Of a stretch of DNA of 64,000 bases, positions 4,386 to 29,410 are shown piece after piece. Made by a program: the position numbers and the translations under genes. Numbering within the stretch: the stretch's first letter is position 1; the number at the start of each line of letters is the position of its first letter. Source of the DNA: Paludibacteraceae bacterium (GTDB lineage: Bacteria > Bacteroidota > Bacteroidia > Bacteroidales > Paludibacteraceae); contig JAFPYI010000018.1 in assembly GCA_017412245.1 (NCBI GenBank), positions 33,459 to 97,458 of the forward strand, in the 5' to 3' direction. The notes below the pieces were generated by a model. That model saw nothing but the letters and a program-made list of their open reading frames with translations, did no database searches and was not told where the DNA came from.

Positions 4386-6434
4386 TTAAAGATTTTTCTC
4401 CAGGAACAGCAGTACTCTGTTGTGCATATGTGTATAGTTATTTCCTTTTTTCAGGAAATGATTATCATCCGGATAGAGTTGCATTTCAAACTGTTTGTCG
4501 GCTTGAACGAGTGCATCTATATATTGGAACGCATTTTGTGCATGCACGTTGTCGTCTCCGGTACCGTGAATAATCAATATCTCGCCACTCAAATCCTCTA
4601 CGTGATTCAATAACGAAGCATTTTTATAACCTCGTTCGTTCACTTGCGGGCGACGCATGTATCGCTCCGTATAAGCACTATCGTACAGTTTCCAATCCGT
4701 TACAGGAGCAATCGCCACGCCTGCTTTGAACGGATGACCTTTGGTGCTCATAGTCATTAAGGTCTCGTAACCACCGTAACTCCATCCCATAATCGCCATT
4801 CTCTGAGCATCAATATCATTCCGTTGACCGATATAATTCGCTGCAGCAATCAAGTCTTCCGCTTCTTTGATACCAAGATTCATATAGGTCTCATTTCTCC
4901 ACGCACGTCCACGGCAATCGCTGCCACGCGTATCTACAATCAGAACGGCATAACCTTTATCCACCAATGCGTATTCAAAACGTTTGCGCCAGCGGTTTAG
5001 CACACGTTGACTTTGCGGGCCGGAATAATGCATTACCACCAAAGCAGCAGGTTTTCCATCTGTGTTTTTAGGCAACATAAGCATTGCCTCCAGTTCTTGA
5101 CCTTGAGCATTCGAAATTCTCATCAGTTTCGGCTCCGGCAGTTGATGGGCTTGCCATAGCTCTTTCACCGCTGTATTGTCTAGGATAACCTCGTTTTTAG
5201 TCGCTTTTTGCTTCGAGACAGTATAGAGTGTATAAGTGTTCGGAGTATCGAAACTCTGGAAACAATCAATCATGCGTTTTCCGTCTTCCGAGAAACGCGC
5301 AGCGTGTATTCCTTCGCCGGAAGTGAGTTGGGATACTTGCCCGTTTTTAAGACTCAACGCAAAGATTTGACGCGTTGCCGGAGTGGGCGCTGCTTGGTAA
5401 TAAAGCATTTGATTTTTCTCATCTACGGTATAAAGTGCTGTCACGTCGATTCCTTCCGGCGTTAGCACTTTCTGTTTAATGCCTTGCGCAGAATAGAGAT
5501 AGGCTCTGCGCCAACCGTCTTGCTCGCTCAGCACAATGATTCGTCCGTCAGACAACCACAACCATTCGTCAAACAGCGTATAATCGACAAAATAATTTTT
5601 GCTTTCTTCTCTGTATAACGGATGCGAAACCGTCGATTTGGCATTGACGCTCAGCACTTCCATTTTCGTCTGGTCGCGATTGACACGAAGCACCAACAGA
5701 CCATCATTTTCCCATCTGAGCCGTGGGAAATAAACATCTGCCTGATCGTTATTCACTTGCATGGTCAAAATTCCTTTTGTAGCCACGTCGTAAACACATA
5801 CAGAAGCTTTGGCATTCTTGCACCCGGCTTTGGGATAACGCAGACTCTCCGAACCAGTATATTGCGGATAACGATTGGTGCTATCGCCTAAAAACACTTG
5901 CCATGCAAACGTCGGCACTTCACGTTCGTCTAATCGCACAAATGCCAATTGTTTCGAATCCGGAGACCAAGCAAACAGCGCCGTAGTACCGAATTCTTCC
6001 TCGTACAACCAGTCAGCCACGCCGCTGATAATATCCAGGTTGTCATTTTTGCTGACCGCAACCTCGGTACCAAAATCCAGTTTATGGATATACAGATTAT
6101 TCTCTTTGGCAAAAGCCACATAACGACCGTTAGGACTTAATACTGCGTCCCGCACTTTCACTCCGTTTCCGCCCAATTGTTTGCGTGTGCCGCGTTCAGT
6201 ATCCACTACATACCAATCGGCCACAAACGAACGCCGGAAGATCTGTTCCTCGTTCTCGTATTCCAATTTATACCGATTGGTTTTATCGCTGTACAGATTG
6301 ATATTTTCTTCCTTGGCTTTTCCGCTATCCGCATTCAGGATGCTATCCTGTTCAGCCACTGACAAAGTCAGTGCATTATAATCTCCGCCGAGAATTCCCG
6401 ACAAAACACCTAATATGATTAGAAATATTTTCAT
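4386..6434 (-). CDS. Dipeptidyl peptidase IV (S9 family), exported
   Basis: Serine exopeptidase that removes X-Pro or X-Ala dipeptides from peptide N-termini. A short signal peptide (~1-17) is followed by the eight-bladed beta-propeller domain, which contains the paired-Glu substrate-recognition segment WLYEEEFG. The alpha/beta hydrolase domain follows from about residue 430. The catalytic triad is visible: Ser 552 in GWSYGG, Asp 627 in HGTGDDNVH, and His 659 in DDNHF. The 682-residue length is slightly shorter than typical DPP IV (~720). It starts 5 nt after the preceding gene ends, so both share the promoter at 7725. Together with the Xaa-Pro aminopeptidase at 22365 it points to use of proline-rich peptides. 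Confidence 0.93.
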   Translation of the reverse strand: MKIFLIILGVLSGILGGDYNALTLSVAEQDSILNADSGKAKEENINLYSDKTNRYKLEYENEEQIFRRSFVADWYVVDTERGTRKQLGGNGVKVRDAVLSPNGRYVAFAKENNLYIHKLDFGTEVAVSKNDNLDIISGVADWLYEEEFGTTALFAWSPDSKQLAFVRLDEREVPTFAWQVFLGDSTNRYPQYTGSESLRYPKAGCKNAKASVCVYDVATKGILTMQVNNDQADVYFPRLRWENDGLLVLRVNRDQTKMEVLSVNAKSTVSHPLYREESKNYFVDYTLFDEWLWLSDGRIIVLSEQDGWRRAYLYSAQGIKQKVLTPEGIDVTALYTVDEKNQMLYYQAAPTPATRQIFALSLKNGQVSQLTSGEGIHAARFSEDGKRMIDCFQSFDTPNTYTLYTVSKQKATKNEVILDNTAVKELWQAHQLPEPKLMRISNAQGQELEAMLMLPKNTDGKPAALVVMHYSGPQSQRVLNRWRKRFEYALVDKGYAVLIVDTRGSDCRGRAWRNETYMNLGIKEAEDLIAAANYIGQRNDIDAQRMAIMGWSYGGYETLMTMSTKGHPFKAGVAIAPVTDWKLYDSAYTERYMRRPQVNERGYKNASLLNHVEDLSGEILIIHGTGDDNVHAQNAFQYIDALVQADKQFEMQLYPDDNHFLKKGNNYTHMHNRVLLFLEKNL

Positions 6435-26158: not shown

Positions 26159-26183
26159 AGTATATGTTGTTTTTAATAGTTTT

Positions 26184-26303
26184 CAGTGGTCAGTGATCAG
26201 TGGTCAGTGGTCAGTAATCAGTGATCAGTGGTCAGTGGTCAGTAGTCAGTAGTCAGTGGTCAGCGATCAGTGGTCAGTGATCAGTGGTCAGTTTTTAGTG
26301 GTC
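26184..26303. repeat. 120-nt array of 7-nt repeats in the htpG leader
   Basis: About 17 consecutive copies of a 7-nt unit, cAGTGGT alternating with cAGTGAT and cAGTAGT/cAGTAAT variants, with no unique spacers. It ends 26 nt before the htpG start codon. No coding frame or dyad structure explains it. It is the longest of the short-period repeats in this window. Confidence 0.9.
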
Positions 26304-26328
26304 AATTCTCGTGCCAAGGTATGCATAA

Positions 26329-26383
26329 CTGCCAAAATGGCAGAAAGCAGACAAAAATAATCAAAATATTTGCATATATCAAA
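26329..26383 (-). promoter_or_regulatory. Putative htpG promoter with 5' hairpin
   Basis: On the minus strand TTTG (26383-26380) is followed after 20 nt by TATTTTTG (26359-26352). Eight nt further a perfect hairpin CTGCC-ATTTT-GGCAG (26343-26329) would lie at the very start of the htpG mRNA. The element overlaps the plus-strand promoter at 26369-26400 almost completely. Confidence 0.6.
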
Positions 26384-26400
26384 AAAATGTCGTACCTTTG
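26369..26400 (+). promoter_or_regulatory. Promoter of the structured RNA / exported-protein genes
   Basis: TTTGCATATATC begins at 26369 and TACCTTTG lies at 26393-26400, spacer 20 nt. Over its length it is nearly identical to the secA and LRR promoters. Confidence 0.82.
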
Positions 26401-26406
26401 CGGTCG

Positions 26407-26645
26407 CAAAGGTTTTGAAAACCTTTCGTCGCTTACCGACGTTAAACAGTAAGGACATATTAACAAAGAAGCATTATGCTTTTTCTTGTAGTTGGAAATG
26501 TGAGAAACTTTCAATGTTAGCAAGAATTGGTATGATGGTTCGCGCGTATAGCGTGGACTATTCTGCTGTATCTTCTAACAAAGGTATCTCACAACCTCCA
26601 ACTAGAGAAATAGCACATAGTCTACGCTTTTTGTGTATATTAACT
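26407..26645 (+). ncRNA. Structured RNA, candidate 6S RNA (or long structured leader)
   Basis: From the promoter's expected start, two hairpins (AAAGGTTTT/AAAACCTTT at 26408-26426; CGTCG/CGACG at 26427-26441) precede a long rod. Rod pairings: ATAT..ACAAA..AGC (26457-26472) with GCTTTTTGTGTATAT (26626-26640); TAGTTGGA (26489-26496) with TCCAACTA (26597-26604); TGTGAGA (26499-26505) with TCTCACA (26587-26593); TGTTAG (26515-26520) with CTAACA (26575-26580); AGAAT (26523-26527) with ATTCT (26560-26564); apical GTTCGCGC/GCGTGGAC (26538-26558). A single ~185-nt rod with internal bulges fits 6S RNA in size and shape. There is no T-tract terminator, and the next gene starts 28 nt later, so a regulatory leader is the alternative. 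A 92-codon frame here is not protein-like. Confidence 0.6.
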
Positions 26646-26673: not shown

Positions 26674-27123
26674 ATGAGAAAAATTCTTTCTTTGCTTGTG
26701 GTCGTAGGAATGGCCATTGGCGTGAATGCTCAAACGAAAGCAGCTGATCCAAACGTAAGTGTCGGACAAGCGATTAAAAACACAGGTCTTATCTCCATGT
26801 CGATTGGTGCTCCGTGCGTCGCAGCGGGATTAGCCAGTCTTTTGTATGCAAATCTGTTACCTAATCCGACAACCGGTTATACCACCAGTCAGGCATTGGC
26901 AGAACAGAATTCTGAATTGCAATATATTTCTGTAGGCGAGTATGTAAACCGTTTGGAGACTTATAACGGCAAAGTGAGAGCAGCCAACAATGCAGGTTAT
27001 TTGCTGACCGGAGCAGGTGCTGCATTAACGATAATCGGTATTCCGCTTTATTGTTACGGCAAGAAAATGACGCTTAATGTCAATTATACCGGAAACGGAG
27101 CCGGATTAGCACTTAATTTCTAA
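26674..27123 (+). CDS. Small exported or membrane protein of unknown function
   Basis: 149 residues: signal peptide (~1-19, ending GVNAQ), then two hydrophobic segments (~37-60, LISMSIGAPCVAAGLASLLYA; ~108-130, LLTGAGAALTIIGIPLYCYG) separated by a hydrophilic Gln/Tyr-rich stretch, and a short strand-like C-terminus (LNVNYTGNGAGLALNF). Similar small proteins with two Gly/Ala-rich hydrophobic helices occur in Bacteroidales, but I cannot name a family. It lies 28 nt after the structured RNA with no promoter between, so that RNA may be its leader. It precedes the two lectin-fold proteins by 13 nt. Confidence 0.65.
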   Translation: MRKILSLLVVVGMAIGVNAQTKAADPNVSVGQAIKNTGLISMSIGAPCVAAGLASLLYANLLPNPTTGYTTSQALAEQNSELQYISVGEYVNRLETYNGKVRAANNAGYLLTGAGAALTIIGIPLYCYGKKMTLNVNYTGNGAGLALNF

Positions 27124-27136
27124 CCCTTAAACAACG

Positions 27137-28453
27137 ATGATTATGAAAAAGTATTTCTTTATATTAGTTGCACTTTGTGCATTTATTGGTTGTAAAGATA
27201 ACAGCGGTTTGTATGGATTACTGACCGATTATGATGCGCGAATTGCCAAGTTGGAAAGCCTTTGTTCACAAATGAACACTAATATCACATCTTTAACAAC
27301 AATTGTAGAAGCACAACAGAGTGGCGAGGCAATTACATCTATTACTCCAATAATGGAAGACGGAGATGTGATTGGTTACACTATTACTTTTGCTAATTAT
27401 GACCCGATAACCATTTATACTGGCAGAGGTGATTCTGGTCCGGTTCCCGCTATTGGCGTTAAACAAGACACCGATGGCGTGTATTATTGGACGCTTGACG
27501 GCGAGTGGATGTTGGATGGCAATGGAAAGCGCGTAACAGCAACTCCACAATTGAAAATCGAAGCCGATTATTGGTGGATTTCGTATGATAATGGCGCTAC
27601 TTGGACAAAACTTAGTTCAGCTAAGGGAGATAGTATATTTCAATCGGTTACACAAGATGAGAATTATGTGTACTTTACACTTGAAGATGGCACCGTAATA
27701 ACTGTTAGCAAAGGTGGTGGTGGAGATTCCCATATTATAGACGGTGCAATCCAAGCTATTTTTTCTGTGAGTGCAAGCACCAAGGTGCATTTTTCGCAAG
27801 GTAATTTGCAGTATAGGGCTAGTACCCAGACTTGGCGCTTCGCAGAGAAACAATATGACATGATTGGCGACGACAATGCAAATATATCAGTATCTTATTC
27901 TGGTTGGATAGATCTCTTCGGGTGGGGGAGTGGTAATAACCCCACACTCTTCAGCACGGATTATAGCGATTATCAAATTTTTATTGATTGGGGTGTGAAT
28001 GCTATCTCCAATGGCGGCAACAAAACCAACCAATGGCGTACACTTACTAAGGACGAGTGGGATTATCTAGTCCAAACTCGTTATAATGCAGAAAAACTAT
28101 GCGGACAAGCGACCGTAGTTGGTGTGCATGGTTTAGTATTCCTGCCAGATAATTGGACTACTCCAAATTCTCTTACATGGCAAGGTATGCAGAATAATTG
28201 GATTACGAATCAATATAGCGCAACCGATTGGTCGAAGATGGAAGCGGCGGGAGCAGTCTTTCTGCCTGCTGCGGGCTATCGAGTCGGAACGAAGGCACAC
28301 GCTTCGTTCGATTATTATTATTGGTCGTCCTCTCCAATCAATGATTACGAGGTCGGTGCGTACGATTTCGCCTTCTCCGAATACAGCGCGGGCAGTAGCA
28401 GCAATGACCGTTTTTTTGGTCTTTCTGTTCGTTTGGTCAAAGATGTTAAATAA
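27137..28453 (+). CDS. Lipoprotein with DUF4988 and C-type-lectin-fold (FGE/FISUMP-like) domain
   Basis: 438 residues. Signal peptide with lipobox (FIGC, Cys ~19-21), a short coiled coil (DARIAKLESLCSQMNTNI), then the DUF4988 pattern: ITPIMEDGDVIGYTITFAN, PAIGVKQDTDGVYYWTLDG, PQLKIEADYWWISYDNGATW and VTQDENYVYFTLEDGTVI. From ~205 the domain shared with the next gene begins (VHFSQGNLQY...WRFAEKQYDMIG), ending in YYWSSSP...FFGLSVRLVK, the C-terminal strand pattern of formylglycine-generating-enzyme/C-type-lectin folds. Residues just before GLSVRL (~415-430) are mostly NNC/NNT codons and differ from the paralogue. Binding to carbohydrate or protein ligands at the cell surface is likely; the ligand is unknown. 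Confidence 0.75.
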   Translation: MIMKKYFFILVALCAFIGCKDNSGLYGLLTDYDARIAKLESLCSQMNTNITSLTTIVEAQQSGEAITSITPIMEDGDVIGYTITFANYDPITIYTGRGDSGPVPAIGVKQDTDGVYYWTLDGEWMLDGNGKRVTATPQLKIEADYWWISYDNGATWTKLSSAKGDSIFQSVTQDENYVYFTLEDGTVITVSKGGGGDSHIIDGAIQAIFSVSASTKVHFSQGNLQYRASTQTWRFAEKQYDMIGDDNANISVSYSGWIDLFGWGSGNNPTLFSTDYSDYQIFIDWGVNAISNGGNKTNQWRTLTKDEWDYLVQTRYNAEKLCGQATVVGVHGLVFLPDNWTTPNSLTWQGMQNNWITNQYSATDWSKMEAAGAVFLPAAGYRVGTKAHASFDYYYWSSSPINDYEVGAYDFAFSEYSAGSSSNDRFFGLSVRLVKDVK

Positions 28454-28462
28454 CAAAATTTT

Positions 28463-29410
28463 ATGAAAAAACTTTTCCTTTTTATCACAGCTGTCTTCTC
28501 TGCAGTAAGTATTATTGCCGCCGAAGGTGCACTAAATGGATTTTTTTCAATCAATGCCCAAGGCGACAAAATCCAATTCTCTCAAGGTAATTTGCAGTAT
28601 CAAGCCAGCACGCAAACTTGGCGTTTTGCAGAGAAACAATATGACATGATTGGTGATGCCAATGCAAATATTTCAGCATCCTATTCTGGTTGGATAGATC
28701 TGTTGGGCTGGGGTACGGGCAATAATCCTACGTGCTCAACCAAACAGAATGCTCATTATCAGATCTTTACAGATTGGGGAACCAATGCTATAATCAATGG
28801 TGGTAACAAAGCTAATCAATGGCGGACTTTGACAAAAGACGAATGGTACTACCTATTTTATGGTCGCGCCAATGCTGAAAGTCTCTTTGCGTTTGCAACA
28901 GTTGAGGGTGTGCATGGAGTAATCATTTTACCAGATATTTGGACAACTCCGGTTAACCTTACTTTCAACGCAAGTACAGCCAAGGGGATGAATTGGTTTG
29001 ATGATGGATATTATGATGATAATGCAGGAAAGCATTTTTCTGATAACGTTTATATATCCAGCGAGTGGTCGAAGATGGAAGCAGCAGGAGCTGTCTTTCT
29101 ACCTACTGCGGGCTACCGAGACGGAATGGATGTGGATTATGTAGGTTCGTTCGGCAACTATTGGTCTTCTACTTCATGCGGAGAAAACTACGCATATGGT
29201 ATCGGTTTTAGTTATTACTACCTCTTTCTGCAGGTAGACTACTATCGTTACGATGGTCAGTCTGTTCGCCTCGTACAATTTTACGAAAACCATGAAGCAC
29301 TTGATAATAATTTTATTGAGTTCAAAACCATCAAAAGCATTAAGGAGGGACATTTGTTCATTGAGCGTAACGGAAAGATATACAACTCCCAAGGCCAAGA
29401 GGTCAAATAA
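28463..29410 (+). CDS. Exported C-type-lectin-fold (FGE/FISUMP-like) protein, paralogue of the preceding gene
   Basis: 315 residues: signal peptide (~1-20), then directly the lectin-fold domain without DUF4988. The first ~65 residues of the domain (IQFSQGNLQYQASTQTW onward) are nearly identical to those of the upstream protein, showing a recent tandem duplication. The C-terminal face (NYWSSTSCGEN...YYLFLQVDYYRYDGQSVRLV) is quite different. After the domain comes a ~45-residue extension ending in GHLFIERNGKIYNSQGQEVK, the same type of tail as the LRR protein at 17037. It starts 9 nt after the upstream stop and is followed by a terminator, so it is the last gene of the transcript from 26400. 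Confidence 0.75.
   Translation: MKKLFLFITAVFSAVSIIAAEGALNGFFSINAQGDKIQFSQGNLQYQASTQTWRFAEKQYDMIGDANANISASYSGWIDLLGWGTGNNPTCSTKQNAHYQIFTDWGTNAIINGGNKANQWRTLTKDEWYYLFYGRANAESLFAFATVEGVHGVIILPDIWTTPVNLTFNASTAKGMNWFDDGYYDDNAGKHFSDNVYISSEWSKMEAAGAVFLPTAGYRDGMDVDYVGSFGNYWSSTSCGENYAYGIGFSYYYLFLQVDYYRYDGQSVRLVQFYENHEALDNNFIEFKTIKSIKEGHLFIERNGKIYNSQGQEVK

What the first reader, a model, noticed from the sequence alone, without database searches (positions are those of the whole stretch)
26407..26645. Rod-shaped RNA of ~190 nt resembling 6S RNA, behind a strong promoter
Six complementary segments, nested in order, fold 26457-26640 into one long bulged rod with an apical GTTCGCGC/GCGTGGAC hairpin; most arms are perfect 5-8-bp matches. 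Size, single-rod shape and strong promoter fit 6S RNA, which inhibits or tunes RNA polymerase. Two extra hairpins (26408-26441) precede it, and the next ORF starts only 28 nt after it, so a structured leader for the exported-protein genes is the main alternative.
Basis: partly seen in the sequence, partly recalled or inferred. Interest (0 to 1): 0.72.

Follow-up and report, generated by a model that had tools for sequence, protein, structure and literature searches.

The report
Uncatalogued switch-like leader RNA family
The rod-shaped RNA is not 6S RNA but one copy of a large, apparently uncatalogued family of folded RNA leaders that sit in front of surface-protein and DNA-modification genes in Bacteroidota and look built to switch transcription of those genes.

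Summary
The rod at 26457-26640 is real (z = -8.2), but it is not 6S RNA. It belongs to a dispersed RNA family without an Rfam match. A covariance model built here matches 87 of 247 genomes of the order (69 of 173 genera) and 16 of 247 drawn from the phylum, own genome included; up to 18 copies per genome. Core: helix P2, a 7-8-bp helix K whose 3' strand is the loop of a small hairpin, P3, and an apical arm A:B. A tail strand T before a T-run can pair with B instead of A. Helices covary strongly; T fits its own B best; the fold favours the strand of the following gene (128 of 130). That gene lies on the same strand in 130 of 133 cases; 88 of 130 have signal-peptide-like starts against 66 of 306 controls. 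Best reading: a 5' leader acting as a transcription attenuator; termination, direction and trigger are inferred or unknown. A few close pairs show leaders and genes recombining as separate modules.

The parts
26369..26400 (+). promoter-like elements TTTG (26369-26372) and TACCTTTG (26393-26400)
   Evidence: letters; TAnnTTTG occurs within about 105 nt upstream in 68 of 141 elements against 3.7% of mononucleotide shuffles; consensus recalled
26408..26426 (+). 5' hairpin AAAGGTTTTGAAAACCTTT, next to the promoter
   Evidence: fold; promoter-side stretch repeated elsewhere in the genus
26427..26453 (+). 5' module: hairpin CGTCG-CTTAC-CGACG whose loop can pair with GTAAG 26449-26453 (pseudoknot)
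   Evidence: 58 of 60 copies complementary at the variable base; exact module in 103 stretches of named genomes
26453..26481 (+). GGACATA and small hairpin HP0 (AAGCATTATGCTT, 26469-26481)
   Evidence: HP0 pairs in only 71% of cells, the weakest helix of the model
26489..26604 (+). helix P2: TAGTTGG 26489-26495 with CCAACTA 26598-26604
   Evidence: 99.1% of cells paired, changes on both sides at every pair
26499..26593 (+). helix K: TGTGAGA 26499-26505 with TCTCACA 26587-26593; the latter is the loop of hairpin HPb AGGT 26582-26585 / ACCT 26594-26597
   Evidence: 99.0% of cells paired; HPb third pair covaries, p = 4e-10
26515..26580 (+). helix P3: TGTTAG 26515-26520 with CTAACA 26575-26580
   Evidence: 93.4% of cells paired
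26530..26567 (+). apical arm: strand A 26530-26545 and strand B 26551-26567
   Evidence: A:B -23.3 kcal/mol in this copy
26612..26632 (+). tail strand T (26612-26627) and T-run TTTTT 26628-26632
   Evidence: B:T -24.8 kcal/mol in this copy; own T beats T of other elements, p = 1.5e-22; TTTTT 8-48 nt after P2 in 94 of 129 elements against 10.6% of shuffles
26674..27123 (+). gene led by the element: 149-aa protein with a signal-peptide-like start
   Evidence: a leader directly precedes homologues in 5 of 11 other genomes with a match

Best explanation
The element is a cis-acting 5' leader RNA of a family that Rfam does not hold, and it most likely controls the gene behind it by transcription attenuation. 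Strand B of the apical arm can pair with upstream strand A or with tail strand T. A:B is nested inside the folded core (P2, the K/HPb loop pairing, P3), so a stable core should keep B in A:B and let polymerase run on into the gene. If the core is open, T takes B; that helix runs straight into a U-tract and should end transcription before the start codon. Shown: conserved fold, its strand, its position before the gene, and the fit of T to its own B. Inferred: termination, the direction of the switch, and that a ligand, protein or other signal acts on the core.
For: Covariation: 94.2% of cells paired against 52.6% in shuffles, score 0.926 against 0.188; helix set in 130 of 142 elements against 2 of 284 shuffles; HPb. 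Strand: 460 G-U pairs in the apical arm on the + strand against 100 on the other, + more stable in 128 of 130. Position: next gene same strand 130 of 133. Alternative pairing: B with own T -18.8, with others -13.8, with shuffled T -9.2 kcal/mol on average; TTTTT in 94 of 129 against 10.6% by shuffle. Long forms have a local GC hairpin before the T-run (by eye).
Against: No transcript data. B:T is at least as stable as A:B in only 39 of 120 elements. The B:T loop would be about 45-80 nt, unusual for an intrinsic terminator (recalled). A local hairpin pairs T better in 14 of 120. 35 of 129 lack TTTTT in the tested interval, and a lenient T-run is common by chance (48%). 73 of 141 lack TAnnTTTG upstream. 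Two of the five shuffle measures do not exceed chance. HPa shows no covariation. No common metabolic theme among the genes.
Confidence: 0.6

Rival explanations
1. A structured 5' leader that acts after transcription (translation, stability or localisation of the mRNA), with the T-run not a terminator.
For: Same position and strand data; 88 of 130 downstream genes look exported.
Against: The element-specific tail strand before a T-run has no obvious role then.
Confidence: 0.22
2. A discrete small RNA that ends at the T-run and acts in trans; the downstream gene is incidental or has its own promoter.
For: Promoter in front and T-run at the end of many copies.
Against: Same-strand gene in 130 of 133, median 69.5 nt behind the model end; in the window only 41 nt lie between T-run and ATG.
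Confidence: 0.09
3. Primarily a DNA recombination or cassette site, in the manner of an integron attC site.
For: Breakpoints at the leader ends in four close pairs; upstream genes also lean to the same strand (96 of 128).
Against: Strand asymmetry of the fold; integron integrase over the cut-off in 1 of 61 genomes, not in this genus; GTTRRRY in 42 of 94 copies of the 5' module only.
Confidence: 0.07
4. 6S RNA.
For: Length, rod shape and promoter.
Against: No 6S model match, several copies per genome, leader position.
Confidence: 0.01

Closest known systems
Riboswitches and other transcription-attenuating leaders (mechanism recalled)
   Same: 5' position, conserved core, three mutually exclusive strands A, B, T with a U-tract, many loci per genome.
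   Different: No catalogued class matches; genes are surface proteins and R-M enzymes rather than one pathway; whole core helices are rewritten between close copies.
6S RNA (RF00013, RF01685)
   Same: About 190 nt, rod-like, promoter in front.
   Different: No model match; multicopy; before genes; no large central bubble in the fold.
Flavo-1, Bacteroidales-1 and other Bacteroidota motifs of Weinberg 2010 (PMC2864571, passages)
   Same: Structured elements of Bacteroidota found by comparison.
   Different: None reaches its threshold in the window or in 36 related loci. Flavo-1 is reported in either orientation to transcripts (PMC9723704 section 19), this family is same-strand.

Membership tests
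6S RNA | match to the 6S or 6S-Flavo covariance model | tested here: not met
   window none; relatives
6S RNA | single housekeeping gene rather than many gene-linked copies | tested here: not met
   own genome 6 matches, up to 18 elsewhere; gene-linked
6S RNA | binds RNA polymerase and templates pRNA | not testable with these tools
   needs biochemistry
Transcription attenuator leader | lies 5' of and on the strand of the regulated gene | tested here: met
   130 of 133
Transcription attenuator leader | mutually exclusive helices, one followed by a U-tract | tested here: met
   by sequence and energy only
Transcription attenuator leader | premature termination that responds to a signal | not testable with these tools
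   no transcript data
Riboswitch | direct ligand binding | not testable with these tools
   no ligand known; no Rfam riboswitch match
Integron attC | integron integrase in the genome | tested here: not met
   1 of 61 over cut-off, in G067 of another family
Integron attC | core site GTTRRRY (consensus recalled) | tested here: not met
   42 of 94 copies of the 5' module; inverse core site not tested

The most novel reading that the evidence does not exclude
A phylum-wide RNA switch class, unrelated to any catalogued riboswitch, governs moving accessory genes (surface proteins, restriction-modification) in Bacteroidota. The switch is a module: genes are swapped under leaders and leaders over genes, while each copy rewrites its core helices by paired changes, perhaps so that the many copies in one cell do not pair with each other. 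A signal read by the common core (GACAUA, HP0, GGY/RCC) would set whole batteries of such genes.
Probability: 0.35. Interest if true: 0.9.

Novelty: new variant of a known kind. Interest (0 to 1): 0.76.

Why it matters
If true, a common and apparently unlisted regulator gates adhesin-like repeat proteins, lipoproteins and restriction-modification enzymes in one of the dominant phyla of gut, rumen and water. It would make the question of how these bacteria switch accessory and surface genes directly testable, and the search for its trigger could reveal a new cellular signal. The strongly covarying core is also a good target for RNA structure work.

Tried and rejected
6S RNA: rejected on model searches, copy number and position. 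Integron-like site: rejected as the main reading. Rfam: apart from a tRNA far away in the window, the only gathering-level hit in 36 related loci is DUF805b in L015 at 2766-2800, outside its element. Viral contigs: exact form of the genus 5' module not found, which says nothing on other forms. Phages: no match to one flavobacterial copy. Plasmids: none for the window copy; one weak partial match for a flavobacterial copy, confirmed by R1 at E = 2.4e-7 (L299). A pattern search with one mismatch was too loose: reversed-pattern controls hit almost as often in many genomes. MAFFT alone misaligned the core, so the model alignment was cut into segments by script and padded with N.

Biases, controls against me and dropped rows. 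Helices were sought within each sequence, so leans towards the structure; A4 is fitted to the model too. In one search the counts of pairs with a change on both sides (22 against 21.3) and of further pair types (76 against 78.2) do not exceed shuffles. R1 was trained on 16 rows, 15 of them from the genus. One search's 42 of 101 genomes include many matches to the promoter or 5' module alone. One search left out two matches cut by contig ends (L177, L224); 9 elements had short flanks and 4 no gene within 600 nt. Searches used 142 elements, leaving out L015, L066, L076, L095 and loci that repeat another; 130 could be annotated and 120 had the lenient T-run. That lenient T-run appears in 48% of shuffles, so the strict one is quoted. 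Signal peptides were called by a home-made hydrophobicity rule and ORFs mechanically. One search covered 99 of the 103 loci plus L299. The match lists were cut by the tool.

Literature: search listings 32, 56, 63, 78, 83, 94, 95; passages of PMC7366714, PMC9723704 (plus section 19), PMC2864571, PMC8040213. None of that text describes this element; supplementary tables could not be read, so it may be among unnamed candidates there.

Full report
What was checked. The rod is real: 26407-26645 folds at -83.9 kcal/mol against -48.2 for shuffles (z -8.21); without the two 5' hairpins z is -8.22. Rfam finds nothing there, neither at gathering thresholds over the window nor at E up to 10 around the element, where four matches far below their thresholds appear.

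It is a family. A DNA search found partial matches in 42 of 101 genomes, many of them to the promoter or 5' module alone. Reading the copies showed a repeated layout: a small hairpin with a pseudoknot, GGACATA, a small hairpin (HP0), then a rod in which a 7-8-nt strand on the 5' side is complementary to a strand inside a GGY...RCC hairpin on the 3' side, and finally CACGC-like letters followed by T's. A script found this set in most copies examined, with different letters in the subfamilies. Model R1 was built from 16 copies, 15 of the genus. It finds one place in the window, 26451-26617, E = 1.5e-14; 85 of 120 relatives, up to 18 copies per genome, 6 in the own genome; 87 of 247 genomes and 69 of 173 genera of the order; and 16 of 247 genomes and 8 of 122 genera drawn from the phylum: the own genome, 14 class-mates and one genome of another class. 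The best match lies in another family of the order, not used for training (L295, 111 bits, E = 8.3e-22). Named records with the genus 5' module are MAGs titled Bacteroidales, Paludibacteraceae or Bacteroidia, many from ruminant guts (103 stretches).

The fold is under selection. On 74 distinct sequences aligned by the model, 94.2% of cells pair against 52.6% for shuffles and the covariation score is 0.926 against 0.188; with partners slid by 1-3 columns it is at most 0.110. Two of the five measures, pairs with a change on both sides and further pair types, do not exceed shuffles. The helix set at score 24 or more appears in 130 of 142 elements and 2 of 284 dinucleotide shuffles. The third pair of hairpin HPb, not paired in the model, is C-G 13, U-A 34, C-A 0, U-G 2 (p = 4e-10; 51 of 70 cells paired against 40.3 in shuffles), while the first pair of the proposed hairpin HPa shows no covariation (p = 0.40). 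So one K strand is the loop of a real hairpin; whether its partner is also a hairpin loop, a true kissing loop, stays open. The genus pseudoknot is complementary at its variable base in 58 of 60 copies with the same spacing.

It is RNA from the coding strand. In the apical arm the + strand fold uses 460 G-U pairs over 130 elements and the reverse complement 100; the + strand is more stable in 128 of 130, and for the whole element in 122 of 130. A site that works as double-stranded DNA gives no reason for this.

It belongs to the gene that follows. Of 146 distinct elements, 9 had short flanks and 4 no gene within 600 nt; of the other 133 the next gene is on the same strand in 130. The upstream gene is on the same strand in 96 of 128. 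The median distance from model end to ORF start is 69.5 nt. Signal-peptide-like starts, by a simple hydrophobicity rule, occur in 88 of 130 downstream proteins, 66 of 306 other genes of the same loci (Fisher p = 1e-19) and 18 of 128 upstream proteins. Among the 130 downstream proteins 15 match BspA-type LRR_5, 4 the MmeI methyltransferase domain, 3 a T9SS sorting domain and 2 the EcoRI methylase family, 2 FISUMP, and up to 3 a type IIG restriction-methyltransferase model; only the 25 commonest families of each library were shown. Homologues of the window's own gene were found in 11 other genomes of the 76 searched; in 5 of these 11 (L301, L303, L304, L305, L306) a leader lies directly in front, and in L311 one lies before another gene.

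A built-in alternative. TTTTT lies 8-48 nt after P2 in 94 of 129 elements, against 10.6% of shuffles and 19.8% of stretches further downstream. The letters before the T-run (T) pair with the 3' strand (B) of the apical arm, which otherwise pairs with the 5' strand (A). Over 120 elements, B with its own T averages -18.8 kcal/mol, with T of other elements -13.8, with shuffled T -9.2 (p = 1.5e-22 and 4e-28); medians for A:B and B:T are -22.2 and -20.4, B:T is at least as stable in 39 of 120, and in the window copy the values are -23.3 and -24.8. In 14 of 120 a local hairpin pairs T better. The two helices are near in energy and exclude each other, and the second ends in a U-tract: the layout of an attenuator. 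As A:B is nested in the core and B:T is not, a stable core should favour read-through. Termination itself and its direction are inferred.

Modules that recombine. Of 240 element-to-element DNA alignments considered, 199 stop near both ends of the leader; alone this could reflect conservation of a working RNA. Four close pairs go further. L225/L233 share upstream DNA and leader at 96% and then differ. L193/L252 share upstream DNA and most of the leader and then differ. L082/L214 share 474 nt of upstream DNA at 98% and then differ from the 5' module on. L303/L305 share the gene side (92% over 1,359 nt; nearly identical by eye within the gene) and differ in the leader. In L193/L252 the apical part is almost identical while P2 and P3 differ on both strands with pairing kept (by eye). 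No integron integrase over the cut-off is seen in the genus (1 of 61 genomes in all), so ordinary recombination through the conserved ends is the simpler cause; this was not tested.

Verdict. Structured RNA family in a leader position: about 0.95. Transcription attenuator: 0.6. A riboswitch that binds a small ligand directly: perhaps 0.25. It should not be filed as 6S RNA, whose tested features it fails. It works like an attenuator leader but matches no Rfam family. The text seen in four papers and the listings of seven searches do not describe it; unnamed candidates in supplementary tables could not be checked.

Noticed in passing
window 26183-26304: Tandem array of a 7-base unit TCAGTGG, 17.4 copies at 82% match, between htpG and the leader promoter; function unknown.
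   Followed up: partly
window 27137-29410: Two exported proteins with related halves follow the led gene; they look like FISUMP proteins (by eye and recalled, not scanned in the window).
   Followed up: no
window 26392-26424 and relatives: The promoter plus the start of the hairpin (query 3-35) recurs many times in the genus without the leader.
   Followed up: no
L026, L029, L037, L069, L073, L080, L086, L103: Genes just upstream of genus leaders look like PIN, RelE/ParE, ORF6N, KilA-N or BRO proteins (by eye and recalled); their stop codons often abut the 5' module.
   Followed up: no
L279, L280, L284: A transposase-like gene, IS1595-like by eye and recall, points away from the leader just upstream in three class-mates.
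   Followed up: no
G012:C87:23796-23949, G011:C9:47600-47718, G005:C18:3678-3821: Weak 6S-Flavo matches below cut-off, possibly the true 6S RNA genes of this genus.
   Followed up: no
G067:C50:52308-53159: Integron integrase over the curated cut-off in a genome of another family of the order; that genome has no R1 match.
   Followed up: no
L299:4956-5103 (NZ_CP033916.1): A Chryseobacterium shandongense plasmid carries an unannotated copy between a LexA-family regulator gene and a T9SS protein gene; a 120-aa unlisted ORF at 5156-5518 lies in between.
   Followed up: partly
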